Below, one piece after another: positions 7,971 through 22,083 of a stretch of DNA of 27,536 nucleotides (the first letter of the stretch is position 1; every line of letters starts with the position of its first letter). The notes under the pieces were generated by a model. The model was not told where the DNA came from. It made no database searches and worked only from the letters and a program-made list of their open reading frames with translations. The position numbers and the translations under genes are program-made. Origin of the DNA: a virus; the IMG/VR virus record IMGVR_UViG_3300017989_000373, positions 1 through 27,536 of that record; one strand, given 5' to 3'.

Positions 7971-9113
7971 ATGACGAATAAAGAACGTGAAGATTATTTG
8001 GCTAAAATAGCACAGGTTAAATACGAAGCCTCTATGTACACAAATATGGAACAAGGCGTCAAGCTCATGCTTAACTCTATTTACGGTGCATTTGGTAATC
8101 CTTATTTCTATTTCTTTAATGTTGATATTGCTGAAACAATTACCCTTCAGGGTAAGGATGCTATTCTATACACTGAAAAACTTGTCAATAAATACTTTAA
8201 AGAATTTTGGCATAAAGATATTCCTGCTCATACCGCAATGGGTATATCTGTTACCGGTAAAATTGAAAAGCCCGTAGGTATCTATATTGATACAGATTCG
8301 GTATATGTTAAGTTTGATGAAGTCATTAAAAAAGCCGAAGGTTGGGAAGGTGATGAAAAGGAATTCATTCTTAAGTTATATGAAGTAAGACTTAAGGATT
8401 ATATTGAAAAGATTCTACAGAAATATGCTGATGATAATAATGCAGAGAATTTCTTAAGCTTTGAATTGGAGAGTATTGCTAAAAATGCAATATGGCTTGC
8501 CAAGAAAAAGTATATGCAAAATATTGTATGGAAAGATCCAGGTATTCATTATGATGATCTTTCAAAAATCAGTGCCAAAGGTTTTGAAATTATTCAATCG
8601 TCAACACCTCTTTTTGCTAGAGAAAAACTAAAAGATCTTCTTACATATATCTTTTCTGTTAAAGAATTAGATATGGGTAAATTTGCAAGTCAACTTAAAG
8701 ACATTAAAAGACAGTTCAGATTAGCAAACACTGACCACATTAGTTTCTCTAAGAAGGTTAATAACTATCAACGATATATAGTAAACGATTATGATACATT
8801 TGAAATTGCATCAAAATGTCCAATAGGTGTAAGATCTGCAGGTTATCATAATTACCTATTAAATAACTCCAGTGTGAAAGGGAAATATCAGCCGCTAGGA
8901 AACGGCGAAAAACTAAAAATGTACTTTTCTGTAGATCCATCTTGTGATGTATTTGCATATGCACCTGGTGATTATCCTTATGAATTTGCCCCTAAGGTAG
9001 ATTATGATAAACAATTTGAAAAGACAATATTGGATCCAATAAATCGGGTTGTAACTGCAATGGGATTTAAGGCCTTTAATAGAAATCTAATTTATACAAC
9101 CAATCTTTTCTAA
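7971..9113 (+). CDS. gp43: C-terminal half of family B DNA polymerase (T4 gp43-like)
   Basis: This 380-residue protein starts about 30 residues before motif B (KLMLNSIYGAFGN, fingers). It continues with palm motif C (YIDTDSVYV, catalytic DTD), the FELESIAKNAIWLAKKKYM segment and the thumb, matching roughly the last 40% of T4 gp43 in order. The exonuclease domain and motif A are absent. They are not upstream either, since gp45 and a terminator lie there. The N-terminal half must be encoded elsewhere. The N-terminus (MTNKEREDYLAK) has none of the C-intein motifs, so this is best read as a non-spliced two-subunit polymerase, as in some Aeromonas T4-like phages with 43A/43B. The intact motifs argue against a pseudogene. 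Confidence 0.9.
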   Translation: MTNKEREDYLAKIAQVKYEASMYTNMEQGVKLMLNSIYGAFGNPYFYFFNVDIAETITLQGKDAILYTEKLVNKYFKEFWHKDIPAHTAMGISVTGKIEKPVGIYIDTDSVYVKFDEVIKKAEGWEGDEKEFILKLYEVRLKDYIEKILQKYADDNNAENFLSFELESIAKNAIWLAKKKYMQNIVWKDPGIHYDDLSKISAKGFEIIQSSTPLFAREKLKDLLTYIFSVKELDMGKFASQLKDIKRQFRLANTDHISFSKKVNNYQRYIVNDYDTFEIASKCPIGVRSAGYHNYLLNNSSVKGKYQPLGNGEKLKMYFSVDPSCDVFAYAPGDYPYEFAPKVDYDKQFEKTILDPINRVVTAMGFKAFNRNLIYTTNLF

Positions 9114-11232: not shown

Positions 11233-12183
11233 ATGGGTAAAGAATTTTCATTCGCAGATTTAAACAAGGAAATGTCAAAACACTCTACATACGGAGAGAC
11301 ATTAGATAAATCAAGCATTTCAGAAATTGATCACTTTATACCTACTGGAAATTACCACCTTAATGCATGTTTAACAGGATCCTTATTTGGAGGTTATCCT
11401 AATAACAGAGCAGTTGCATTGGCTGGTCCTTCTGGTACAGGTAAAACTTATCTTATTCTTAATGCTGTTAAACAAGCACAGGAAATGGGATATAGTATTG
11501 TATTCTATGATTCTGAAAATGCAGTAGATAAAAAATTAGTTGAAAAATTTGGAATAGATCCTAAAAAATTCCGTTATGAACCTTGTAATACGGTTCAAGA
11601 ATTCAGAAGTTCTGTTACCGCATTAACTGATCTTTTAATTGAACAAAAGAATAAGGGTGCTGAATTACCTAAAGTTTTGATTGTATTAGATTCTGCAGGT
11701 AACCTTGCAACACAAAAAGAAATTGATGATGCCAAGAGTGGTAGTGATAAGGCTGATATGACACGAGCTAAATTGCTTAAATCTACGTTCCGTATCCTTA
11801 TGACTAAATTAGGTATTGTAAAGGTACCTTTCTTATTTACAAATCATACATACCAGACACAAGACCTATTTTCTCGCCAGGTAGGAGGAGGTGGTTGTTT
11901 AGCACCAGGTTCATTGGTATTAATGGCCGATGGAACTTATAAGGAAATTGAGAATATAGTAGAAGGTGATAAAGTAAGAACATTAATGGGTGATAAAGAT
12001 ATCGAACAAACATGGGAGTTTGATAAACCTACTTACAAGGTAGAGTTTAAAGATGGTTCTGAATTGGTATGCTCTGAAGATCACCGATTCTTTATTGGAG
12101 ATTCTACCGATGATCCGTTAGATGATGACAATTGGGTATATGCAAAAGACCTAGTCGAGGGAGATACTGTATCAAAAGTTTAA
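11233..12183 (+). CDS. uvsX: UvsX recombinase N-terminal part fused to N-intein
   Basis: The protein has 316 residues. Residues 1-221 are the N-terminal part of a RecA/UvsX strand-exchange protein. Walker A is GPSGTGKT (65-72), the Walker B strand is KVLIVLDSAGN, and LFTNHTYQTQ is followed by the GGGG of the ssDNA-binding L2 loop. At Cys222 the reading changes to an N-intein of 95 residues with block A (CLAPGSLVLMADG) and block B (GSELVCSEDHRFF). The frame stops at 12183 with no endonuclease or C-intein. The partner is 13195-13848. After trans-splicing the mature UvsX would be 221 + 177 = 398 residues (T4 UvsX has 391). It has its own promoter-like element. Without splicing the ATPase core lacks the rest of L2 and the C-terminal domain. 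Confidence 0.93.
   Translation: MGKEFSFADLNKEMSKHSTYGETLDKSSISEIDHFIPTGNYHLNACLTGSLFGGYPNNRAVALAGPSGTGKTYLILNAVKQAQEMGYSIVFYDSENAVDKKLVEKFGIDPKKFRYEPCNTVQEFRSSVTALTDLLIEQKNKGAELPKVLIVLDSAGNLATQKEIDDAKSGSDKADMTRAKLLKSTFRILMTKLGIVKVPFLFTNHTYQTQDLFSRQVGGGGCLAPGSLVLMADGTYKEIENIVEGDKVRTLMGDKDIEQTWEFDKPTYKVEFKDGSELVCSEDHRFFIGDSTDDPLDDDNWVYAKDLVEGDTVSKV
11896..12180 (+). other. Split N-intein of UvsX (95 residues, classical split site)
   Basis: It begins with the nucleophile Cys (TGT at 11896) right after the run of Gly codons in UvsX. Both splicing blocks A and B are in this fragment, so the split lies at the usual endonuclease insertion position, after block B. The +1 extein residue supplied by the partner is Thr. 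Confidence 0.92.
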
Positions 12184-12190
12184 AATTAGT

Positions 12191-12219
12191 TGTGGTGGTT
12201 AATAGGTTTTCCCGCCACA
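12191..12219 (+). other. Stem-loop between UvsX N-intein and endonuclease gene
   Basis: TGTGGTGG (12191-12198) pairs with CCGCCACA (12212-12219), giving 8 bp with one T-G pair and a 13-base loop. No T run follows; instead the TCTAAATA element begins at once. It could be a weak terminator, an mRNA 3' end stabiliser or a block to read-through translation of the endonuclease. Confidence 0.5.
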
Positions 12220-12240
12220 TCTAAATATATAAAATAAAAA
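12220..12240 (+). promoter_or_regulatory. Late-promoter-like element of the uvsX-locus endonuclease
   Basis: TCTAAATA (12220-12227) matches the T4 late -10 TATAAATA at 7 of 8 positions. The 20 bases 12221-12240 (CTAAATATATAAAATAAAAA) occur again, identical, at 19004-19023 before the gene-46 endonuclease. Confidence 0.5.
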
Positions 12241-12242
12241 CC

Positions 12243-13247
12243 ATGAGAAGTTCGCCTAAAGCATATACTAATTTAAAAACTGATTTTAATAAATTTAAAG
12301 AATTACTAATTGAACACTTCCCTGCATTTAATATCTCAAACACTGATTATTTGAATACTGTGTATTCTTATATATGTGGTATAAAAATTAAAGGGAAGGT
12401 ATCTTTTATAAGAGAATGTAGTAAATTTTTTAAATTGCAACGAAACGGAAAGGGCGGTTCAAGAACATCTAAAGATTACTGGGTATCAATTGGGTGGTCT
12501 GAAGATGAAGCAATAAAAAAAGTATCTGAGCTACAATCGGCTAGATCAATTTTAACTGTGGGATATTGGACAAACCGAGGTTATAGCGAAAGTGAGGCGA
12601 AGAAGATGGTTGCCGAAAGACAGTCATATAATTCAAAGAAAAGATATGAAAAGTATACCGCAGATGAAATCTCAAGTCAATCAGTATGGAGTAAGTCTTA
12701 TTGGATGGCAAAAGGATATACCGAGGAAGAGGCAGAATATGAAATTGCTAAAAGAAATTATGGAAAGAGAGAATTTTGGAACTCGGATAAAGAGTATGCT
12801 GAGATTAAAAAAATCATAGGTAAGAAAACCTCTAACTTTATAAAGAATAATCCAGAAAAATATAAATCCTTTTTTGGAAGTGTTTCTAAAGAAGAGACTG
12901 TATTTTTTGAAGACTTGTGTAGCAGTATTCCTGGTGTTAATCATAAGCCATTCATTGTTAATGTTAAAGCAAGTGAGTCACTAAACCAAGGGATAGTAAA
13001 ATACGATGGTTACTTAAAGACTGATGGGGGGATAATATTAATTGAATATGATGGCTTATACTGGCATAACCAATCATATGATGAAATAAAAGATACGGTA
13101 ACACTTGATATTAGAAATAATATTTTAGGTATAATAAGAGTTTCTTGTGAACACTATAAAACAAAACCTATAAAAACAATAAAAATAATAAATCATGCAA
13201 TTAAAGAAATTAAAAGTAAAAAAAGTAACAGAGTTAAAATCTACTAA
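12243..13247 (+). CDS. Free-standing Vsr/EDxHD-type homing endonuclease in the uvsX intein locus
   Basis: This 334-residue protein has three copies of a YWxxxGYxxxEAxxxVxxxQ repeat (about residues 79-98, 108-127 and 153-171), probably DNA-binding. A C-terminal nuclease core follows with D255 in KYDGY, then LIEYDGLYWHNQ (E268, D270, H275), resembling the DG.FWH core of Vsr mismatch endonucleases. Endonucleases of this Vsr-like (EDxHD) family are known between halves of split inteins in phage and metagenomic sequences, where they cut intein-free alleles and spread the locus. The 3' end overlaps the C-intein gene by 53 bases in another frame. It is more divergent than the other two endonucleases of this window. 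The catalytic assignment is by eye. Confidence 0.85.
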   Translation: MRSSPKAYTNLKTDFNKFKELLIEHFPAFNISNTDYLNTVYSYICGIKIKGKVSFIRECSKFFKLQRNGKGGSRTSKDYWVSIGWSEDEAIKKVSELQSARSILTVGYWTNRGYSESEAKKMVAERQSYNSKKRYEKYTADEISSQSVWSKSYWMAKGYTEEEAEYEIAKRNYGKREFWNSDKEYAEIKKIIGKKTSNFIKNNPEKYKSFFGSVSKEETVFFEDLCSSIPGVNHKPFIVNVKASESLNQGIVKYDGYLKTDGGIILIEYDGLYWHNQSYDEIKDTVTLDIRNNILGIIRVSCEHYKTKPIKTIKIINHAIKEIKSKKSNRVKIY

Positions 13248-13314
13248 GGTTCACGATTTAACTGTTGTTGATGCACAACACTATATAACCGACAACGGTG
13301 TTATTAATCATAAT
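13195..13314 (+). other. Split C-intein of UvsX (40 residues)
   Basis: It encodes Met1 to the terminal Asn40 of the C-intein (…DNGVINHN), followed by Thr as +1 nucleophile at 13315. The length fits classical split C-inteins of about 35-40 residues that carry only blocks F and G. Confidence 0.92.
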
Positions 13315-13848
13315 ACAGGCCCAGAGTATGCTGCTTCTATTATTCTTTTCTTAGGTAAGGCAAAACTCAAAGAAGGTATTGAACAGACGGGTATTATTGT
13401 AACTGCAAAACCTAATAAGAATCGTTTTGCTAAACCTATACCAATTAAATTCCACATTTCATTTAACAAAGGTATGAATCCTTATATTGGATTAGAAGAG
13501 TATATCAGCTGGGATACTTGTGGTGTTGAACGTGGAAGGTTTATTAATAAAAATGCATACAATAAACTTAACGAGGCAGGTAAAGCAGAATGCCGAGAAC
13601 ATACATATGAAAAAGATGGTAAAGAAGTAACTGTTTATTTCCAACCTGCAGCAACTGCTCGTAAGATCTGTGTAGCTCACCTTAATAAGACTGTTGATCT
13701 TAATCAATTATTTACACCATTGGTTATGACACCAGAAGTTTTACAAAAACTTGAACCGGTAGTTGCCGAGAAGTTTAAATATGGTGAAGAAGTTGATGTA
13801 GAGAATTTAACTGAAATGCTTGAAGGAAATGCTGAAGAAAACGATTGA
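13195..13848 (+). CDS. uvsX: C-intein fused to UvsX C-terminal part
   Basis: The protein has 217 residues. Residues 1-40 are a C-intein: block F VHDLTVVDAQHYITDNG and block G ending VINHN. UvsX resumes at Thr41 (TGPEYAASIILFLGK), the sequence that should follow the L2 glycine run, and extends 177 residues to the C-terminal domain. The start is fixed by the single Met of the C-intein and follows an A-rich stretch, although it lies inside the 3' end of the endonuclease gene. Trans-splicing with 11233-12183 ligates Gly221 to Thr. The acidic C-terminus (ENLTEMLEGNAEEND) is usual for RecA-type proteins. It overlaps the next small gene by 29 bases. Confidence 0.93.
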   Translation: MQLKKLKVKKVTELKSTKVHDLTVVDAQHYITDNGVINHNTGPEYAASIILFLGKAKLKEGIEQTGIIVTAKPNKNRFAKPIPIKFHISFNKGMNPYIGLEEYISWDTCGVERGRFINKNAYNKLNEAGKAECREHTYEKDGKEVTVYFQPAATARKICVAHLNKTVDLNQLFTPLVMTPEVLQKLEPVVAEKFKYGEEVDVENLTEMLEGNAEEND

Positions 13849-14165: not shown

Positions 14166-14858
14166 ATGAAATCAAGTACAGATCACGAAAAAATATTCTT
14201 TAACTATTTTCTTAAGAAACCGCATTATCTAAAAAGCACAGGCCCAGGTTTCTTTTCTAACAGTGATCTGGATCATATTGCAAAATTAGCCAAGAATTTT
14301 TATACTAACTTTGGCGAAAGCCCTTCACGAGAACAAATGAAGGCTTTGGTTAAAGATGATCCTAATGAAATTCCTGATGATATTGTAACGAGTATTTATG
14401 ACATTAACATTAATGAATATGATCAGGATTGGTTAAAGAGAACCGGTGAGTCTTGGGTTAAATGGAAACATTTTGATAAACAGTTGGTAAGAACTATTGA
14501 GTATGTAAAAACTCAAGATGTTACACCAGAAAATGTTGAAGATGTAGTAACTCGTGCAATTGGTATGATCTCTACAGAAGGATCATTAAACTTTGATACT
14601 GATATTGGATTAGACTTCTTCAATCCCGAGCACCACATACAGAGAACATCCAAGAAGATTGAAACAGGTTGGACTTTCGTAGATAATGTTTCAGGTGGCG
14701 GTTATGATACAAAATCTCTTATTGTATATGCCGGTGAACAAAATATTGGTAAGTGTGCTCATTATGATACCTTAATTAATATTAGAAACAAGAAAACTGG
14801 AAAAATCCAAAGTATTAAAGTTGGTGACTTTTTTAATCTTATTAAAGAAAATTCTTAA
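14166..14858 (+). CDS. gp41: Replicative helicase gp41 N-terminal part fused to short N-intein
   Basis: The protein has 230 residues. Residues 1-196 are the helicase N-terminal domain and the start of the RecA-type ATPase domain (TGWTFVDNVSGGGYDTKS, then VYAGEQNIGK). Walker A is cut directly after its Lys. Cys197 opens a 34-residue N-intein containing only block A (CAHYDTLINI … KVGDFF). The frame stops there. T4 gp41 is the 5'-3' hexameric helicase of the replisome, DnaB family. The N-part alone has an incomplete P-loop and cannot bind ATP. The partner is 16033-17142. The mature product would be 196 + 231 = 427 residues (T4 gp41 has 475). Confidence 0.92.
   Translation: MKSSTDHEKIFFNYFLKKPHYLKSTGPGFFSNSDLDHIAKLAKNFYTNFGESPSREQMKALVKDDPNEIPDDIVTSIYDININEYDQDWLKRTGESWVKWKHFDKQLVRTIEYVKTQDVTPENVEDVVTRAIGMISTEGSLNFDTDIGLDFFNPEHHIQRTSKKIETGWTFVDNVSGGGYDTKSLIVYAGEQNIGKCAHYDTLINIRNKKTGKIQSIKVGDFFNLIKENS
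14754..14855 (+). other. Atypical short N-intein of gp41 (34 residues, block A only)
   Basis: It begins with Cys (TGT at 14754) right after the Walker A Lys. Block B is not here; it is in the partner (GGKSLKCADDHILF). The split therefore falls between blocks A and B, the rare arrangement known for AceL-TerL-type inteins. Confidence 0.88.
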
Positions 14859-14910: not shown

Positions 14911-16033
14911 CTGCAAAATATGCAATAAAGAATTTAAGTCACGAAAGTCTTTACAAATGCATTTAAGAAAGACTCATGAATTTTCAGATATTCAACTTAA
15001 AGAATATTATGATTCTTATTTAAAGTCCGATGCTGAAGGTAAAGATCCTTTCACCGGTAATAAAACTAATTTTATAGGATTTACAAAGGGATATTCAATG
15101 TTTGATGGTAGTGAAGAATCTAATAAGAAAAAGATTGCATCATCAACAGTTGAATATTGGGTTAAGGTAAAAGGTTACTCTGAGGCAGAAGCAATTAAGT
15201 ATCTTAAAGATAAACATGAGAGATCAACTAAAAATGCAAATGAAACTAAAAAGAAGCTTATGGATGAAAACCCAGAGCGCAGATTTTTAGGTGGATACGG
15301 TAAAAGAAAATGGGAATTGATGGGATATTCTCCAGAAGAGGCGCAAAGAAAATATGAAGAGATAAGGGATACAAGAGAGCCAAAATTAAAAGAGAGTTTA
15401 TCTAAAGTAGATTGGTCAGGTAAAAGAAAGGGGCAGATTGAATATTGGTTAAATAAAGGGTATACTAGGGAAGAGGCTAAAGTTAAAGTTAAAGAATCAC
15501 AATCAACCTTTACCTTAGAGAAATGTATTAAAAAATACGGTAAAGAAAAAGGTACCAAAATCTTTAGAGAAAGACAAATACAATGGTCCACGTTAATTGA
15601 AGAAAAATATCAGAATGGAGAATTTACTAGATTCTGTAAAAATAATTGGTCAAAAACAGAAGAAGATTTTATTAAAGAGTTGGTAAAAAGTTTAGAATTA
15701 AAAGAATCTGAATATAATTCATCTGTTAATGGAAAACAGTTCTTTAGAAATTTTAAAGAAGTAGGAAAGACCCTTGCATATGATTTTAGATATAAGAAAA
15801 AGATTATAGAATTTAATGGTGACTATTGGCACTGTAATCCTGCTCTTTATGAAGCAGATTATTTTAACAAATCTTTACAATGTACCGCAAAAGAAAAATG
15901 GGAATTTGATGAATGGAAAATCTCACTAGTAGAAAATGAAGGTTACCAAGTTCTTACTGTTTGGGAAAGTGATTGGAATGAGAATCCTAAACAAACCGTA
16001 CAAAAATGCATAAAATTTATAAATAAAGATTAA
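14903..16033 (+). CDS. Free-standing Vsr/EDxHD-type homing endonuclease in the gene 41 intein locus
   Basis: This 376-residue protein starts with a C2H2 zinc finger (C4, C7, H20, H25). Copies of the YW..GYS..EA repeat follow at about 85-105, 137-155 (degenerate) and 181-200, then a TFTLEKCIKKYG segment. The C-terminal nuclease core has D294 (AYDF), E303 and H310 (KIIEFNGDYWHCNP) and ends with a VLTVWESDW strand. The core resembles Vsr endonucleases. It is closely similar to the gene-46 endonuclease (19033-20160), with the core residues at identical positions. The last codon overlaps the C-intein ATG by one base. Its start codon is within a stem. It should cut intein-less gene 41 alleles; the target is inferred, not shown. 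Confidence 0.88.
   Translation: METCKICNKEFKSRKSLQMHLRKTHEFSDIQLKEYYDSYLKSDAEGKDPFTGNKTNFIGFTKGYSMFDGSEESNKKKIASSTVEYWVKVKGYSEAEAIKYLKDKHERSTKNANETKKKLMDENPERRFLGGYGKRKWELMGYSPEEAQRKYEEIRDTREPKLKESLSKVDWSGKRKGQIEYWLNKGYTREEAKVKVKESQSTFTLEKCIKKYGKEKGTKIFRERQIQWSTLIEEKYQNGEFTRFCKNNWSKTEEDFIKELVKSLELKESEYNSSVNGKQFFRNFKEVGKTLAYDFRYKKKIIEFNGDYWHCNPALYEADYFNKSLQCTAKEKWEFDEWKISLVENEGYQVLTVWESDWNENPKQTVQKCIKFINKD
15980..16025 (+). repeat. Endonuclease 3'-end repeat, copy 1
   Basis: These 46 bases match 20110-20155 at 41 positions without gaps, including the identical string ATGCATAAAATTTATAAATA. Identity at synonymous sites points to recent common origin of the two endonuclease genes. Confidence 0.85.
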
Positions 16034-16446
16034 TGGAATTAACATTAGACAATCTTACTGATCTTAAACATATTGATTTAAGCCAAGGTATTAAAAGAAA
16101 ATTTGAAGAAACTTTTAATGTATCTGACTGGGAAGTTGAAACTGATTTAGGTTGGTCTCCCATTAAAAGGATAGGAAAAACTATTCCATATGAAGTATGG
16201 GAAGTTAAGACAAGTGGCGGTAAATCTCTTAAGTGTGCAGATGATCATATTCTTTTTGATGATACATATGATCAAATTTTTGCCAAGAATTTAAATAAAG
16301 ATACTAGACCTGATAAAATTATTACAAAGGATGGAGCAGAATTAGTAGAGTATTCAAAGCCGTTGGGGTATACAGAGAATATGTTTGATTTAGAAGTAGA
16401 TGATACAAATCATAGATATTTTACAAATGATATACTTTCCCATAAT
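16033..16446 (+). other. Atypical long C-intein of gp41 (138 residues, blocks B, F, G)
   Basis: It ends SHN, and the +1 residue is Ser (TCT at 16447). At 138 residues it is far longer than a classical C-intein because it carries most of the HINT fold. Confidence 0.88.
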
Positions 16447-17142
16447 TCTATTTGGTTGGCCAATGATGCTGCTAACTTCGTTAGAATGGGTCATAATGTA
16501 GTATTCATTTCGGCTGAGATGTCTGCACAAAAGGTACTTAAAAGGATAGGTTCTAATCTGTTAGATATTTCCATGATGGAATATGATAATAAAACAGGCA
16601 ATCGTGAATTTATGAAAAGGAAATTGGAAAGAATCTCTAGAGGATTACTTCCACCAGGAAAACTCTTCGTAAAAGAATTTCCAACATCTCAAGGTACTGT
16701 TCTTGATATTGAATCCTATCTTAAAGACTTAGAAGAAAGCCAAGATCATAAAGTAAATGTTTTGGTGGTTGACTATATTAATATTCTTGCAAATTATAGA
16801 AATCCTAATACTGAAAATACTTATATGAAGATTAAGCAAATTGCCGAAGATCTTCGCGCTCTTGCTGTTAAGAGAGATATGTTAGTAATTTCAGCAACGC
16901 AGATTAACCGTGGTGCATGGGATGCAACTGAAGTAAGAATGGAAAACATTGCAGAATCTGCAGGTCTTGCGCATACCGCCGATGTTATGTATGCATTGAT
17001 TCAAGATTCAATGATGCACGCAAATAGAGAATATTGGTTAAAGGTACTGAAGATTAGAGATGGGCAAGGGAAAGGGTCAAGATGTAGATTTAATATCGAT
17101 TATGATCATATGAGATTAACCGAAACCGATGACATAAATTAA
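16033..17142 (+). CDS. gp41: Long C-intein fused to gp41 helicase C-terminal part
   Basis: The protein has 369 residues. Residues 1-138 form a long C-intein with block B (GGKSLKCADDHILF, about 62-75), block F (NMFDLEVDDTNHRYFTNDI) and block G (ILSHN). gp41 resumes at Ser139 (SIWLANDAANFVRMGHNVVFISAE), restoring Walker A as GEQNIGK-S. Walker B is VNVLVVDYINI, followed by EDLRALAVKRDMLVISATQIN and IAESAGLAHTADVMYAL, characteristic of T4-type DnaB helicases. It is the trans-splicing partner of 14166-14858. The start codon overlaps the endonuclease stop (TAATG), so it may be translationally coupled to it. Confidence 0.93.
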   Translation: MELTLDNLTDLKHIDLSQGIKRKFEETFNVSDWEVETDLGWSPIKRIGKTIPYEVWEVKTSGGKSLKCADDHILFDDTYDQIFAKNLNKDTRPDKIITKDGAELVEYSKPLGYTENMFDLEVDDTNHRYFTNDILSHNSIWLANDAANFVRMGHNVVFISAEMSAQKVLKRIGSNLLDISMMEYDNKTGNREFMKRKLERISRGLLPPGKLFVKEFPTSQGTVLDIESYLKDLEESQDHKVNVLVVDYINILANYRNPNTENTYMKIKQIAEDLRALAVKRDMLVISATQINRGAWDATEVRMENIAESAGLAHTADVMYALIQDSMMHANREYWLKVLKIRDGQGKGSRCRFNIDYDHMRLTETDDIN

Positions 17143-17149
17143 ACACAAT

Positions 17150-17647
17150 ATGTGGGGAAAAAAGAAAAAACCAAAATTAGATGAAAATGGCAAAGAAATA
17201 AAGCCATCATTAGCAGATAAAGACAAGATCTTTAACAACACTTACGGTGAACAAGATATAACCGAAAATCATGTAAACTTTACAGTTTCTTCTACTTACC
17301 TGGATGATACGGATCCAGATGATAAGATGCATTATGAACAATTAATTAAAAAGATTGATGCCTTAATTAAAGGTAGTGAATATGAGCATCTCAATGAAGC
17401 CACCCCTGATGGTGTTATTAAGAAACTAAATAAAGTACAAATCAATAAAGTATATACTTATGTAATTGAACATATTGGTGACTATTATACAAGAGTAGAT
17501 TTATTTAGTGTTATATCAGATTACTTTGATGTATTTCCTAACAAATTTTATAACTCTCTTTCTAATAAATTTAAAGATGAACTTATTAAAGAATTAGATG
17601 ATAAGTATAATATCCTAGAGAAAAGAAAAATACGAAAACTATTTTAA
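17150..17647 (+). CDS. Conserved-looking protein of unknown function between genes 41 and 47
   Basis: This 165-residue protein has a Lys-rich start (MWGKKKKPKLDENGKE), an acidic middle (TYLDDTDPDDKMHYEQ) and a helical C-terminal half ending in basic EKRKIRKLF. I recognise no domain. It lies 7 bases after gene 41 and 1 base before gene 47, so it is part of the same operon and probably serves replication or recombination. A role beside the helicase (loader or mediator, as T4 gp59 or UvsY) is a guess from position only. I see no sequence similarity that supports it. Confidence 0.7.
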   Translation: MWGKKKKPKLDENGKEIKPSLADKDKIFNNTYGEQDITENHVNFTVSSTYLDDTDPDDKMHYEQLIKKIDALIKGSEYEHLNEATPDGVIKKLNKVQINKVYTYVIEHIGDYYTRVDLFSVISDYFDVFPNKFYNSLSNKFKDELIKELDDKYNILEKRKIRKLF

Positions 17648-17648
17648 C

Positions 17649-18734
17649 ATGGCAAGAATTTTTATGATTAGTGATTCTCACCTTGGGTGTAGATCAAATT
17701 CAGTTTTATGGCTTAACATCATTGAAGATTACTTCTTTAACTTTTTCATACCATTAGTTAAAAAGGAATACAAAGAAGGGGATGTCCTCTATCATTTAGG
17801 GGATGTGTTTGATAATCGCCAAAGTATTAACTTGGCTGCGCAAGATTTAGGAATTAGAGTTTTTGAAGAATTAGGAAAGATATTTCCAGACATTCATATC
17901 ATTGTAGGTAATCATGATATAATGAGAAAGAACTCCAATGATATTGCATCAGTAGACTGCCTTAAGTATATTCCTAATGTTACAGTTCATAAAGAACCTA
18001 AGATCTTACAGTATGGAGATACTAAATGTTTACTTATGCCATGGCGAAGAGATCATAAACATGAAAAAGAAACATTAGATTCTATTACAGAAAATATTGA
18101 CTATATGTTTTGTCATACTGAAACGCGCGGTGTTCAAACGAGTCCTAGTACAAAATATTTACACGAAGGTGGTAATGATGTTTCAACCTTTAAGAGATTT
18201 AAGAGAGTTTATTCAGGTCATATTCATTATAGGCAAGATAAACAGAATTTTGTACTTGTAGGAAATCCTTACCAGATGACAAGATCTGATCGCGATAATC
18301 AAAAAGGTATCTATCTATTGGATTTAGATACTGGAAAGCACCAGTTCTTTATGAACAAGAGGAGTCCAGTATTTATACGGTATTATATTAATGATATCTT
18401 AGAGATGAGAATGGAGGATATAAAGAGAGAAATAAAGGATAATTTTGTGGATGTGTTTGTGCCATCAAATATCTTAGGTAAGTATAATATTAATAGATTC
18501 ATGGATTACCTAGATGGTGTTGCCAGAAAATTAGAACCAAGAATTTACGATGAAGATAACCCATATGATAGAGAAGATGGGGAAATGTCAGATTTTAATG
18601 GAGAATTGAATTTAATGAATATTGCCGCAGAGTATATCAATTCATTAGATTATGAACAGGATTTAAAGGAAAGACTAAAACAGTCGGTCCAAGAACTATA
18701 TAAAACAACACTATCACCTAACTATGAAGATTAA
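17649..18734 (+). CDS. gp47: Recombination nuclease subunit gp47 (SbcD/Mre11-like)
   Basis: This 361-residue protein has the ordered metallophosphoesterase motifs: ISDSHLG (D9, H11), LGDVFDNR (50-57), GNHD (87-90), CH at 155-156 and SGHIH (189-193). With gp46 it forms the Mre11/Rad50-type complex that resects DNA ends for recombination-dependent replication. The length is near T4 gp47 (339). The C-terminal third lacks further motifs and should contain the gp46-binding region. It starts one base after the upstream gene. The gene-46 N-part follows at 18783 after a 48-base gap, keeping the T4 order 47-46. Confidence 0.94.
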   Translation: MARIFMISDSHLGCRSNSVLWLNIIEDYFFNFFIPLVKKEYKEGDVLYHLGDVFDNRQSINLAAQDLGIRVFEELGKIFPDIHIIVGNHDIMRKNSNDIASVDCLKYIPNVTVHKEPKILQYGDTKCLLMPWRRDHKHEKETLDSITENIDYMFCHTETRGVQTSPSTKYLHEGGNDVSTFKRFKRVYSGHIHYRQDKQNFVLVGNPYQMTRSDRDNQKGIYLLDLDTGKHQFFMNKRSPVFIRYYINDILEMRMEDIKREIKDNFVDVFVPSNILGKYNINRFMDYLDGVARKLEPRIYDEDNPYDREDGEMSDFNGELNLMNIAAEYINSLDYEQDLKERLKQSVQELYKTTLSPNYED

Positions 18735-18782
18735 CAAATGCTATGTATAGATGGCATTTCAATAATTGTAATAAAAAATAAC

Positions 18783-19007
18783 ATGAAAATAAATCGCGTA
18801 GAGTTTAAGAATTTTGCAAGTTACGGTAACCGAAAGCAAGTAATAGAATTTGACAAAAATAAAAGTGACCTATACTTGGTATTAGGTGGAAATGGTGCAG
18901 GTAAATGTCTCGCAAAAGAAACTAAGATCTCGGTTGAAATTGAAGATGAGAAATTAAAAGAAGAATTCAAGGAATTCTTAAAAACAAGAAAATCCGTTAC
19001 GCCCTAA
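18783..19007 (+). CDS. gp46: gp46 (Rad50/SbcC-like) N-terminal part fused to short N-intein
   Basis: The protein has 74 residues. Residues 1-41 (MKINRVEFKNFASYGNRKQV … LVLGGNGAGK) are the first strands of a Rad50-type ATPase ending exactly at the Walker A Lys. Cys42 starts a 33-residue N-intein (CLAKETKISVEIEDEK…), and the frame stops at 19007. An earlier ATG at 18738 is in frame, but gp46 proteins begin at the MKI…NRVEFKNF strand, so 18783 is preferred; it also follows an A-rich leader. The partner is 20164-22083. This is a very small gene fragment, easily missed in automatic annotation. The mature protein would be 41 + 515 = 556 residues (T4 gp46 has 560). Confidence 0.92.
   Translation: MKINRVEFKNFASYGNRKQVIEFDKNKSDLYLVLGGNGAGKCLAKETKISVEIEDEKLKEEFKEFLKTRKSVTP
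18906..19004 (+). other. Atypical short N-intein of gp46 (33 residues)
   Basis: Cys (TGT at 18906) follows the Walker A Lys. The fragment has block A character (CLAKETKISVEI) and ends before any block B, which is in the partner (GEEIICSPDHLFF). Confidence 0.87.
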
Positions 19008-19038
19008 ATATATAAAATAAAAATAGGACGTAATGGAT
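18992..19038 (+). promoter_or_regulatory. Hairpin hiding the gene-46 endonuclease start codon, with late-promoter-like loop
   Basis: The left arm (18992-19005, ATCCGTTACGCCCT) pairs with the right arm (19025-19038, AGGACGTAATGGAT): 14 positions with one G-T pair and one C-A mismatch. The stem contains the endonuclease ATG (19033-19035). The 19-base AT-only loop plus the end of the left arm contains CCTAAATATATAAAA, like a T4 late -10. The left arm also carries the last codons of the N-intein. Confidence 0.7.
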
Positions 19039-20160
19039 AAAATTGATATTATTAAGAATAGGATAGATAAAAGTTCAACTAATAAAGCTTTAATTCATTT
19101 TAAAGATCATGTATTAGAGAAAGTATATGAAAATATTTCAGTAGATGATGCATTGACTTATTCATTGACTAAATTAATTGGTATTAAAAATTCTTATATA
19201 AAGAATATTACTACAAAACAGTTGCGTGTATATTCTTTAGATTATTATTTAATACGAGGATGGGATATCAATGATGCAAAAGATAGAATATCTAAATTAC
19301 AAAGAAATAATTCATTAAAATTTGCTAAAAAGAGAAAGTCTAATCCAGAACTATATAGTCACATGAAGAGTCCAATGACTCTTGAATTTTGGTTAGATAA
19401 GGGGTTTTCAGAATCTGAGGCAAATGATATTATTCAATCACAACGGCCAAGTTCGATTAAATACTGGCTAAATAAAGGATATTCTGAAACGGATGCAAAA
19501 AAATTAGCAACAGATCACCAAAAAAATGCTGGTCTGTCTTTTTCTAAAAAATATAAAGAAAATACTAAAAAATATGAAGGATTTTCTAATACACAATTAA
19601 AATATTGGTTAAACAAAGGTTATAGTAAAGAAGAAGCTAAGGAAAAATTAAAAGAAAGACAGTCTACATTTACATTAGAAAAATGTATTAAAAAATACGG
19701 TGAAAAGGAAGGCACTCATGTCTTTAACGAAAGACAAGAAATGTGGAAAAAATCTTTACAAGAAAATTTTGAAAGAGAAGGTGACGGTCGTAGCCCATCA
19801 AGTAAATTTGCAAATTCTATTATTAGAGAACTTTGTGATTACTTAAACATAGAAATTCCACAAAAAGAAAAATGGATTAAAAATAAAGAAACTGGAAAAG
19901 CATACTCATATGATTTTACTTACAATGGAAAGATCATAGAATTTAACGGTGACTATTGGCATTGTAATCCAGAGATTTATGAGGTAAATTATTTTAATAA
20001 AAATAAAGAAATGACTGCTAAAGAAATTTGGGAGTATGATAAAGAAAAAATTAAAACTGCAGAAAAGTATGATTACCAGGTCCTAACTATATGGGAATCT
20101 GAGTGGGTAGAGAATCCTAAACAAATAATAGATAAATGCATAAAATTTATAAATAATTGA
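19033..20160 (+). CDS. Free-standing Vsr/EDxHD-type homing endonuclease in the gene 46 intein locus
   Basis: This 375-residue protein has four copies of the YWLNKGYSxxEA repeat (about 71-90, 119-137, 144-163 and 191-210), then TFTLEKCIKKYG. The nuclease core has D294 (SYDFTY), E303 and H310 (KIIEFNGDYWHCNP), followed by YDYQVLTIWESEW. Sequence and core positions match the gene-41 endonuclease, which however has an N-terminal zinc finger that this one lacks. The start codon is inside a 14-bp stem. The stop is 3 bases before the C-intein gene. The expected role is homing of the fractured locus into intact gene 46 alleles; cut site and activity are not visible here. Confidence 0.88.
   Translation: MDKIDIIKNRIDKSSTNKALIHFKDHVLEKVYENISVDDALTYSLTKLIGIKNSYIKNITTKQLRVYSLDYYLIRGWDINDAKDRISKLQRNNSLKFAKKRKSNPELYSHMKSPMTLEFWLDKGFSESEANDIIQSQRPSSIKYWLNKGYSETDAKKLATDHQKNAGLSFSKKYKENTKKYEGFSNTQLKYWLNKGYSKEEAKEKLKERQSTFTLEKCIKKYGEKEGTHVFNERQEMWKKSLQENFEREGDGRSPSSKFANSIIRELCDYLNIEIPQKEKWIKNKETGKAYSYDFTYNGKIIEFNGDYWHCNPEIYEVNYFNKNKEMTAKEIWEYDKEKIKTAEKYDYQVLTIWESEWVENPKQIIDKCIKFINN
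20110..20155 (+). repeat. Endonuclease 3'-end repeat, copy 2
   Basis: These 46 bases are the ungapped partner of 15980-16025 with five mismatches, in the last codons of the gene-46 endonuclease. Confidence 0.85.
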
Positions 20161-20163
20161 ATT

Positions 20164-20535
20164 ATGATAGAATGCACTTTAGAAGATTTATATGAATTTA
20201 ATAAATTAAATAAATCCGTAGATAGTGGTAAATTCAAAACTAATACTAGAAAAGGACTCAAAAATATAAATGGAATTGGTGTCACTGCTAAAAATAGCAT
20301 ACAGCATAAATTAATATTAGATTCTGGCGAAGAAATTATATGCTCACCAGATCATCTTTTCTTTGCAAACGATTGGAAAAAGGCAAAACATTTTAAGATT
20401 GGTGATATTATAGAAACAGAAAAAGGATTGTCATATATTTCTAGTAATTCGATCTTAAAAGAAAGATCTGATTTGTACGACATAGAAGTAGATGAAGTAC
20501 ATGAATTTTATGCTAACGGTATTGTTTCTCATAAT
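20164..20535 (+). other. Atypical long C-intein of gp46 (124 residues, blocks B, F, G)
   Basis: It ends SHN with Ser as +1 (AGT at 20536). Like the gp41 C-intein it carries block B, so nearly the whole HINT fold sits on this half. Confidence 0.88.
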
Positions 20536-22083
20536 AGTACTTTAGCAAAAGTGATAACCTATCTTTGTTATGGTAAAGTAGAAGGTGCTAATCTTAAAGA
20601 CTTGCCTAACAGAGTAAACGGGGAGCTTTGGGGTAAAATCTGGTTAGAGTCAAAAAATAATTCTATTGAGATTGAAAGAGGTATTAATCCTGGGGTATTT
20701 AATGTAAAGATTAATGGTTCCGATTATGATGTTGCAGGTAAATCAAATCTTCAAGACTTTTTAGAAACTGAAATTTTTGAAATCCCTTATCATGTATTTA
20801 AGAATGTAATTATTCTATCGGTTAATGACTTTAAGTCTTTTATTACAATGTCCCCTTATGATAAGAAAAGAATCATTGATAAGATCTTTGGTTTTTCAAT
20901 TATTAATGAAATGGCAGAAGCTGTTAAAGAAAAGAGGAGGATCATAATTGAGGAAATCAGAACTTATGAAGATGAAATCCGAACACTTAATGATTCAATA
21001 GATTCTGTTTTAGAAAAGATTGAACATTTTGAAAAGATAAGTAAAGATAAGGATGCCGAAAAGGTTAAAGGTCTTAAAGAAAATCTAGTTACTCTAAACA
21101 GCCAAAGAAAAAAGTTATTGGAGATAGCACAATCAACTAAAGAAAAACTAGAAGAATTAGATACACATTCTCGCAAAAAGAATAATGAAAAATCAAATCT
21201 TAATTCTAAGATCAATACAGTAAAGAAAGAACTTAAGCTTTATGAAAATAATACATGCCCAACATGTACAGCCCCTCTTAATTCAGATTTTCATTTAGAT
21301 ATTAAAAAGGAAAAGGAAGAAAAATTAGATTCCTTATTTTCCCAATGGAATGGCATTAAAGCAGAAGCTGAAAAGGCTGAAGCCGATCTCACGGCCCTTC
21401 GCCAAAAAGGAAGAAAGATCCATGTAAAGGTTGGTCAGTTAGAAACCCAAATGGAATCTATTAAAGATAAGCTAATTGAACTTGCTGATAAGGATGAGTC
21501 TGAATCGTCTTCTCACCTAAAACAACTGGTAAAAGAATTTACTGATAAAAAATCAGATAAAAATGAAGGTAAGTTAAAGAGTGAAGGTGAAGATTATTAT
21601 TTGACTATCTTAGAAAATATTATGGGAGAAGATGGAATTAAGAATTTGGCTGTAAGATCTATTCTTCCATCATTTAATAATAATATCCTGTTAATGGGAA
21701 GGGAAATGGGAATTCCATTTGGTATTAGATTTAATGAAAAGTTTCACTGTTCTCTCCACCATCTAGGTACAGAAATCAGCCCTAAGACTTTAAGTACAGG
21801 TGAAAGAAAGAAAGTTGACTTTGTAATTATTATGGCTTTAATAAAAATGATAAAAGTTAGATTCCCATCTCTTAACATTCTATTCTTGGATGAAATCTTT
21901 TCTTCTATTGACAGTGACGGTGTACACCATATCATAAACATACTTCATAATACTATTCAAGATATAGGATTAAATACATTCGTGATTAACCATACTGTTT
22001 TACCTAGTGAATACTTTGATAAGAAAATTGAAATTACGAAAGATGCAGGCTTTAGCGAATTTAACATTGAATCTATTGGATAA
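20164..22083 (+). CDS. gp46: Long C-intein fused to gp46 (Rad50/SbcC-like) C-terminal part
   Basis: The protein has 639 residues. Residues 1-124 are a C-intein with block B (GEEIICSPDHLFF, about 55-67), block F (LYDIEVDEVHEFYANG) and block G (IVSHN). gp46 resumes at Ser125 (STLAKVITYLCYGK), completing Walker A as GGNGAGK-S. The body then has a Q-loop region (FKNVIILSVNDFKSF), a first coiled coil, a zinc hook (CPTC in NTCPTCTAPL), a second coiled coil, the ABC signature LSTGERKKVDF and Walker B LNILFLDEIFSSID. It is the partner of 18783-19007 by trans-splicing and works with gp47 on DNA ends. Its C-terminal end is complete. Confidence 0.94.
   Translation: MIECTLEDLYEFNKLNKSVDSGKFKTNTRKGLKNINGIGVTAKNSIQHKLILDSGEEIICSPDHLFFANDWKKAKHFKIGDIIETEKGLSYISSNSILKERSDLYDIEVDEVHEFYANGIVSHNSTLAKVITYLCYGKVEGANLKDLPNRVNGELWGKIWLESKNNSIEIERGINPGVFNVKINGSDYDVAGKSNLQDFLETEIFEIPYHVFKNVIILSVNDFKSFITMSPYDKKRIIDKIFGFSIINEMAEAVKEKRRIIIEEIRTYEDEIRTLNDSIDSVLEKIEHFEKISKDKDAEKVKGLKENLVTLNSQRKKLLEIAQSTKEKLEELDTHSRKKNNEKSNLNSKINTVKKELKLYENNTCPTCTAPLNSDFHLDIKKEKEEKLDSLFSQWNGIKAEAEKAEADLTALRQKGRKIHVKVGQLETQMESIKDKLIELADKDESESSSHLKQLVKEFTDKKSDKNEGKLKSEGEDYYLTILENIMGEDGIKNLAVRSILPSFNNNILLMGREMGIPFGIRFNEKFHCSLHHLGTEISPKTLSTGERKKVDFVIIMALIKMIKVRFPSLNILFLDEIFSSIDSDGVHHIINILHNTIQDIGLNTFVINHTVLPSEYFDKKIEITKDAGFSEFNIESIG

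What the first reader, a model, noticed from the sequence alone, without database searches (positions are those of the whole stretch)
18906..20535. gp46 carries a second atypically split intein (33 + 124 residues)
Seen: the N-intein is 33 residues, and block B (GEEIICSPDHLFF) is in the 124-residue C-intein, which ends SHN-S. Its layout parallels the gp41 intein though the sequences differ. Two atypical split inteins in one genome, only about 2.5 kb apart (16446 to 18906), suggest either a local duplication or repeated selection for this split point.
Basis: partly seen in the sequence, partly recalled or inferred. Interest (0 to 1): 0.82.

Follow-up and report, generated by a model that had tools for sequence, protein, structure and literature searches.

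The report
Split intein cassette in gp46
A phage DNA-repair gene (gp46) is cut in two by a split self-splicing protein element with a gene for a DNA-cutting enzyme between the halves; it is a recent, separately acquired invader, not a copy of the similar element in the neighbouring helicase gene, and its DNA-cutting enzyme appears to be assembled from exchangeable halves.

Summary
A 375-residue VSR-type homing endonuclease gene (19033-20160), which the finding did not mention, sits between them. This is a 'fractured gene'.

The duplication idea fails. A tree of 56 C-inteins puts the gp46 intein in a gp46-only clade, far from the gp41 intein (AU test, p = 3e-5). The split points also differ: gp46 is split between blocks A and N2, gp41 between N2 and B. 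The nearest relative (95% identical DNA) has empty sites in gp46, gp41 and uvsX, so all three cassettes are recent acquisitions. Where the endonuclease has decayed (L071, L079), both intein halves stay intact with dN/dS about 0.07-0.17, so splicing is probably functional.

The most unexpected result is in the endonucleases. Their N-halves follow the insertion site (best hit at the same site, 36 of 36). Their VSR-like catalytic C-halves do not (18 of 36); for example, those of gp46 and TerL on one contig are sisters. I call it a new member of a known kind carrying a chimeric endonuclease. Splicing and homing are inferred.

The parts
18783..18905 (+). gp46 N-extein, 41 aa, ends at the Walker A lysine (GGNGAGK)
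   Evidence: phrog_77 match 1-41; aligned base for base with uninterrupted gp46 in L002
18906..19007 (+). gp46 N-intein, 33 aa (block A), and stop codon
   Evidence: relatives of 28-33 aa at the same site in L071, L072, L079, L099, L112, L119, L120
19033..20160 (+). VSR-type homing endonuclease ORF, 375 aa; N-half (about 19033-19566) follows the insertion site, catalytic C-half (about 19567-20157) is exchanged between cassettes
   Evidence: model pLDDT 85, residues 254-375 match Vsr 1cw0 Z 11.3 and I-Bth0305I 3r3p Z 10.2
20164..20535 (+). gp46 C-intein, 124 aa, with blocks N2 (TLEDLYEF), B (SPDH), F and G (SHN)
   Evidence: CatC 6dsl, E 4.6e-11; model pLDDT 82, Hint fold, VidaL 6vgv Z 13.2
20536..22083 (+). 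gp46 C-extein, 515 aa, starting Ser+1 Thr (second half of Walker A)
   Evidence: (phrog_77, 3.8e-61)
18737..18780 (+). remnant of the 3' end of a GIY-YIG endonuclease gene that is whole at this place in L071; absent from the intein-free relatives
   Evidence: 44-base local alignment; only L001 among the relatives scanned shares it
14754..14858 (+). comparator: gp41 N-intein, 34 aa, with block N2 (IKVGDFFN), and stop codon
14903..16033 (+). comparator: VSR-type endonuclease ORF in gp41 (C-half 54% aa identity to the gp46 one)
16033..16446 (+). comparator: gp41 C-intein, 138 aa, followed by Ser+1

Best explanation
gp46 (the SbcC/Rad50-like recombination nuclease subunit) was recently invaded by a mobile split-intein cassette. 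Shown by sequence: gp46 is made as two precursors, gp46N(41)-IntN(33) and IntC(124)-gp46C(515), with a VSR-type homing endonuclease gene between them. Inferred: the halves associate, Cys1 and Ser+1 carry out trans-splicing helped by block B SPDH, the terminal His-Asn releases the intein, and the 556-residue gp46 regains its Walker A motif GGNGAGKST. Also inferred: the endonuclease cuts empty gp46 alleles during co-infection and the cassette is copied in (homing). Shown by comparison: the cassette is unrelated by recent descent to the gp41 cassette. Its endonuclease is a chimera of a site-following N-half (probably target recognition) and a VSR-like catalytic C-half of the kind otherwise found in TerL cassettes.
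For: Exact junctions, block B and intein profiles. Hint fold with VidaL, gp41-1 and Cat among the matches. Empty gp46 site in about 45 relatives with base-exact junctions; in the nearest one, L002, gp41 and uvsX are empty too, with flanks 94-96% identical. HEG decay series: intact in the window and L072, N-half deleted in L071, mere remnants in L079, while the intein halves stay open with dN/dS 0.075-0.17, also between the two HEG-dead copies. C-intein identity to L072 (62%) exceeds extein identity (46%), as expected for horizontal movement. HEG C-domain has the Vsr / I-Bth0305I fold. N-half best hit at the same site 36/36 against 18/36 for C-halves. AU test rejects one clade for the C-halves of gp46-type HEGs, p = 1.6e-4. 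The gp46 and TerL HEGs of one contig (L072/L123) are sister C-halves (100/100).
Against: No splicing or cleavage was measured. The window is a 27.5 kb fragment, so whether the same genome has a TerL cassette (the likely donor of the C-half) is unknown. The co-conversion signal is weak: 13/123 mismatches on the left flank against 47/1083 in gp47 (Fisher p = 0.007), but p = 0.09 against the gp46 C-extein. Rows in the N/C-half test are partly close relatives, so 36/36 overstates the number of independent cases. Profile alignment alone did not fix the place of N2; the split-point claim rests on motif, model and the CatN sequence.
Confidence: 0.88

Rival explanations
1. Local duplication: the gp46 cassette is a copy of the gp41 cassette 2.5 kb upstream (or the reverse), diverged since.
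For: Same overall layout, both after a Walker A lysine; HEG C-halves 54% aa identical, with 75% nt identity over 250 bases.
Against: AU test rejects sister inteins, p = 2.9e-5; different split points relative to block N2; HEG C-halves each nearer to a different TerL HEG; HEG N-halves each follow their own site; both sites empty in the 95%-identical relative, so a duplication would have to be too young for this divergence.
Confidence: 0.02
2. Broken gene: gp46 is simply disrupted, the intein halves are relics and gp46 is not made.
For: No direct evidence of splicing; some related HEGs are decayed.
Against: All catalytic residues present; both intein halves and both exteins open and under purifying selection even where the HEG is dead; the same split kept across divergent phages.
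Confidence: 0.05
3. RNA-level repair: the HEG ORF is removed by an intron or bypassed, joining the N- and C-intein into one contiguous intein.
For: N- and C-intein ORFs are in the same operon and orientation.
Against: No Rfam match, including introns, in the window; the C-intein has its own ATG 3 bases after the HEG stop; start and stop positions conserved in L072, L099, L112.
Confidence: 0.03
4. The shared C-halves of gp46 and TerL HEGs reflect ancient common descent plus uneven rates, not exchange of halves.
For: All belong to one family; trees have open forks.
Against: N-half and C-half trees conflict with strong support (3 against 9 site changes, starred branches forcing 8 for TerL); window gp46 C-half 73% to TerL (L076/L098) but 56% to its own-site relative L072.
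Confidence: 0.1

Closest known systems
Fractured genes (Dassa et al. 2009, doi 10.1093/nar/gkp095; cited in PMC10448857 and PMC7090010, not readable here)
   Same: Host gene split within an intein, with a free-standing VSR-like homing endonuclease ORF between the two halves.
   Different: From my own knowledge, those cases (gp41, Nrd, IMPDH and others) are mostly split at the canonical endonuclease position (N-part about 90-100 aa). Here the host is gp46 and block B is in the C-part. Whether gp46 was in that paper could not be checked.
Atypically split TerL inteins AceL-TerL (25/104), GOS-TerL (37/115) and consensus Cat (PMC11766414; PDB 6dsl)
   Same: Short N-intein, long C-intein with block B; CatC is the best solved match to the gp46 C-intein (E 4.6e-11).
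   Different: CatN ends with the N2 helix (SMEDLYQRLA); in gp46 the equivalent TLEDLYEF is at the start of the C-intein, so gp46 is split one block earlier. Host gene differs.
VidaL intein (PDB 6vgv)
   Same: Best structural match of the gp46 C-intein model (Z 13.2, 117 residues).
   Different: 22-23% identity; the model starts at VidaL residue 22. VidaL's own split site was not checked here.
Aeromonas phage Aes123 PolB split intein with 'putative VSR endonuclease' (JN377899)
   Same: Same gene order: N-part, VSR endonuclease, C-part; related endonuclease.
   Different: Split at the typical position (block B in the N-part, short C-part), in DNA polymerase.
Domain swapping in T5orf172 homing endonucleases of phages (PMC10448857)
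   Same: DNA-binding and nuclease parts of phage homing endonucleases recombine.
   Different: A different nuclease family, free-standing rather than between split-intein halves; no site-by-half test of the kind made here.

Membership tests
Intein (class 1, Hint fold) | Cys/Ser at position 1, block B T/S-x-x-H, C-terminal His-Asn and Cys/Ser/Thr at +1 | tested here: met
   Cys1, SPDH, SHN, Ser+1 read from sequence; Pfam PF14890 1.1e-6 and TIGR01443 above its cut-off
Intein (class 1, Hint fold) | Hint fold | tested here: met
   AlphaFold model of the C-intein, pLDDT 82; 37 PDB hits at E<=0.001, nearly all inteins; VidaL Z 13.2
Intein (class 1, Hint fold) | Catalyses protein splicing | not testable with these tools
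   Needs a bench test; only indirect support from dN/dS 0.07-0.17
Naturally split intein with atypical split (AceL-TerL-like) | N-part short (tens of residues), block B in the C-part, halves encoded by separate ORFs | tested here: met
   33 + 124 residues, separate ORFs, block B in the C-part
Naturally split intein with atypical split (AceL-TerL-like) | Same split point as AceL-TerL/Cat (after block N2) | tested here: not met
   Block N2 TLEDLYEF is in the C-part, helix 6-16 of the model, which starts at residue 12-22 of whole inteins; CatN holds N2
Fractured gene (split intein with HEG between the halves) | Free-standing VSR-like homing endonuclease ORF between the intein halves | tested here: met
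   ORF 19033-20160; C-domain 254-375 matches Vsr (Z 11.3) and I-Bth0305I (Z 10.2); phrog_22677 2.9e-14
Fractured gene (split intein with HEG between the halves) | Empty alleles in close relatives (mobility) | tested here: met
   About 45 relatives with uninterrupted gp46, base-exact junction
Homing endonuclease (active) | Cuts the empty allele and promotes its own copying | not testable with these tools
   Inferred only; catalytic motif IIEFNGDYWH conserved
Local duplicate of the gp41 cassette | Sister relation of the two inteins | tested here: not met
   AU p = 2.9e-5

The most novel reading that the evidence does not exclude
In these phages, split-intein cassettes form a modular homing network over Walker A motifs (gp46, gp41, TerL, gp44, Clp-like ATPases). 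Each site keeps its own endonuclease target-recognition half, while VSR-type catalytic halves are repeatedly exchanged between cassettes, sometimes within one genome. One site can be occupied by unrelated inteins with different split points but related recognition halves (gp46: window type versus L149/L152/L168 type). New homing specificities would then be made by recombining halves rather than by point mutation.
Probability: 0.55. Interest if true: 0.75.

Novelty: new member of a known kind. Interest (0 to 1): 0.6.

Why it matters
It adds gp46/SbcC as a host for naturally split inteins and gives at least seven related natural pairs with N-parts of 28-33 residues, a size useful for attaching synthetic peptides to proteins. 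It shows that 'atypical' splits are at least two different split points, each held by its own intein lineage. The half-by-half pattern in the endonucleases makes an open question directly testable: how homing endonucleases gain new target sites. The natural pairs needed (same N-half with different C-halves, and the reverse) exist in public contigs.

Tried and rejected
Local duplication of the gp41 cassette: rejected by AU test and split-point mapping. Intron or RNA-level joining: no Rfam hit. Origin of the gp46 cassette by transfer from L071 itself: both share a GIY-YIG remnant or gene upstream, but the window's gp46 5' end is nearer to L002 (89%) than to L071 (80%), so the donor is not L071. 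Co-conversion tract: weak, left side only. Profile-profile alignment to place block N2: inconclusive, replaced by structure ranges and the CatN sequence. 'All gp46 inteins one clade' was not rejected by AU (p = 0.115), although all 200 bootstrap trees had two origins. Count of GK before Cys1: my search pattern required GK or AK, so it is no independent evidence for Walker A preference. Whole-genome search for other cassettes: the record is only the 27.5 kb window. Bacterial genome scan: three weak hits, none with the gp46 cassette. Structure of the assembled N+C intein could not be predicted (only unchanged window sequences accepted). The HEG N-half has no assigned fold.

Full report
OBSERVATION. 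The window is a 27.5 kb fragment of a T4-like phage record. gp46 is encoded in two ORFs. The first gives 41 extein residues ending at the Walker A lysine and a 33-residue N-intein beginning with Cys at 18906; the second begins at 20164 with a 124-residue C-intein ending SHN, followed by Ser+1. Family profiles support intein and gp46/SbcC identity. An independent contig (L001) is 99.8% identical over 13.4 kb.

WHAT LIES BETWEEN. ORF 19033-20160 (375 aa) matches phrog_22677 and 'putative VSR endonuclease' genes of Aeromonas phages, where it sits between halves of a split-intein DNA polymerase. Its AlphaFold model (pLDDT 85) has a C-terminal domain (254-375) that matches E. coli Vsr (Z 11.3, 2.8 A over 110 residues) and the homing endonuclease I-Bth0305I (Z 10.2). 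The arrangement is therefore the 'fractured gene' layout: N-intein, VSR-type HEG, C-intein. gp41 and uvsX in the same window have the same layout.

RECENT GAIN. A scan of viral contigs with the gp46 C-part gave 66 loci; about 45 cover the site and are uninterrupted, the two exteins abutting base for base. L002, 94-96% identical in DNA, lacks the cassettes in gp46, gp41 and uvsX. The simplest reading is gain in the window's lineage. The left flank shows a slight excess of differences and a GIY-YIG gene remnant that L071 has whole, suggesting that some flanking DNA came along; this is weak evidence.

RELATIVES AT THE SAME SITE. The same gp46 intein, with 28-33 residue N-parts and 121-124 residue C-parts, occurs in L071, L072/L073, L079 (= L092), L099/L109, L112, L119 and L120. 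The HEG is whole in L072, has lost its N-half in L071 and survives only as fragments in L079; the intein halves remain open in all. dN/dS is 0.075-0.17 for N- and C-inteins, also between L071 and L079, which both lack a working HEG. This is what a host that depends on splicing would show after the HEG has died. C-intein identity to L072 (62%) exceeds extein identity (46%), which fits horizontal movement.

SPLIT POINT. The modelled C-intein has the Hint fold; its residue 1 lies at residue 12-22 of whole inteins (gp41-1 12, NpuDnaB 14, NrdJ-1 16, VidaL 22), and residues 6-16 (LEDLYEFNKLN) form a helix. This is block N2: compare 'TIEELFNV' named N2 in PMC6892783 and 'SMEDLYQRLA' at the end of CatN. 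So gp46 is split between blocks A and N2. The gp41 N-intein (34 aa) contains N2 (IKVGDFFN) and aligns throughout with residues 1-31 of contiguous TerL inteins (E 2e-9), so gp41 is split between N2 and B. By pattern, N2 is at the start of the C-part in the gp46-type cassettes and in the N-part in the others that could be classified; 18 pairs were left unclear by the pattern.

NOT A DUPLICATION. In a tree of 56 C-inteins the window's gp46 intein falls in a clade of eight gp46 inteins (99/96). The gp41 intein falls among gp41 inteins of other phages, in a set that also holds TerL inteins and a second kind of gp46 intein (L149, L152, L168) (98/86). Forcing the two window inteins together is rejected (p = 2.9e-5). 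The gp46 site appears to have been taken by two intein lineages (two origins in all 200 bootstrap trees, though AU did not reject one origin, p = 0.115).

CHIMERIC ENDONUCLEASES. The HEG family search returned 78 loci, most with the HEG between the halves of a split intein in TerL, gp41, gp44, gp46 or Clp-like ATPases, at a Walker A GK|S/T in those examined (the N-intein search pattern required GK or AK). For 36 HEGs split at a fixed distance before the catalytic motif, the best N-half hit is at the same site in 36 of 36 (shuffle mean 13.5, 0 of 2000 as high). For C-halves it is 18 of 36 (223 of 2000 as high). The N-half tree needs the minimum of 3 site changes, the C-half tree 9. The window's gp46 HEG C-half is 73% aa (82% nt over 568 bases) identical to the HEG of the TerL cassette in L076/L098 but 56% to that of gp46 in L072; its N-half is 36% to L072 and 23% to the TerL one. 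L072's gp46 HEG pairs with the TerL HEG of the same contig (L123; 71%, support 100/100). One clade for the C-halves of gp46-type HEGs is rejected (p = 1.6e-4). N-halves of the two kinds of gp46 cassette are related to each other (E about 1e-12) although their inteins are not close. Exchange of catalytic halves between cassettes, with recognition halves staying at their site, explains this; the direction and the donor are not known. A comparable exchange is described for T5orf172 HEGs (PMC10448857).

MECHANISM AND LIMITS. Shown: anatomy, empty sites, purifying selection, independent origin, HEG fold and chimerism. Inferred from established intein and homing knowledge: trans-splicing by Cys1, Ser+1 and the terminal Asn to restore GGNGAGKST; cleavage of empty alleles by the HEG and copying by recombination in mixed infection. 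gp46 takes part in the recombination on which homing relies, which may make it a tolerated host; this is speculation. The original fractured-gene paper is not held in the library, so whether gp46 was listed there is unchecked; a text search for gp46 with intein returned five papers, and the two opened report no gp46 intein.

VERDICT. A real, well-supported atypically split intein in gp46, a new member of a known kind. The endonuclease modularity is the part worth following.

Noticed in passing
window 11233-13845: uvsX is a third fractured gene: typical split (N-intein 95 aa with block B, C-intein about 40 aa), HEG ORF 12243-13247 overlapping the start of the C-intein ORF (13195). Uninterrupted in L002.
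   Followed up: partly
L079 (IMGVR 3300036670_000250): A relative with split inteins in gp41, gp46 and two places in uvsX, where nearly all endonuclease genes are gone or reduced to fragments: an end stage of the homing cycle.
   Followed up: partly
L149, L152, L168: A second, distantly related intein type occupies the same gp46 Walker A site, split after block N2, with endonuclease N-halves related to those of the window type.
   Followed up: yes
L098, L100, L101, L110 and other TerL loci: TerL cassettes have unusually long N-inteins (44-76 aa) whose ends, and the starts of their C-inteins, carry extra hydrophobic helix-like stretches (e.g. KIKWSLWKAYTWLDSF / MINLLKGIILILIGFIETIEY), perhaps an added association element.
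   Followed up: no
L102, L104, L133, L144, L162: The same endonuclease family sits in split inteins of the clamp loader (gp44) and of Clp-like ATPases, also at Walker A.
   Followed up: partly
window 7971-9113: The DNA polymerase ORF starts in mid-gene (PF00136 from position 137); the N-terminal part is not in the window, so gp43 may be split too.
   Followed up: no
L071 651-1262 and 3811-4026: A whole GIY-YIG endonuclease gene between gp47 and gp46 and an HNH-like ORF after gp46; the window keeps 44 bases of the former's 3' end.
   Followed up: partly
L074 3-2293: UvsX-like gene with a very short N-intein (about 20 aa) and N2 in the C-part, next to a helicase with a split intein and an RNR gene with another intein: several inteins in 7 kb.
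   Followed up: no
L080 1304-2545: A gp41 C-intein ORF stands directly after a dUTPase-like gene, so its N-half must lie elsewhere in that genome.
   Followed up: no
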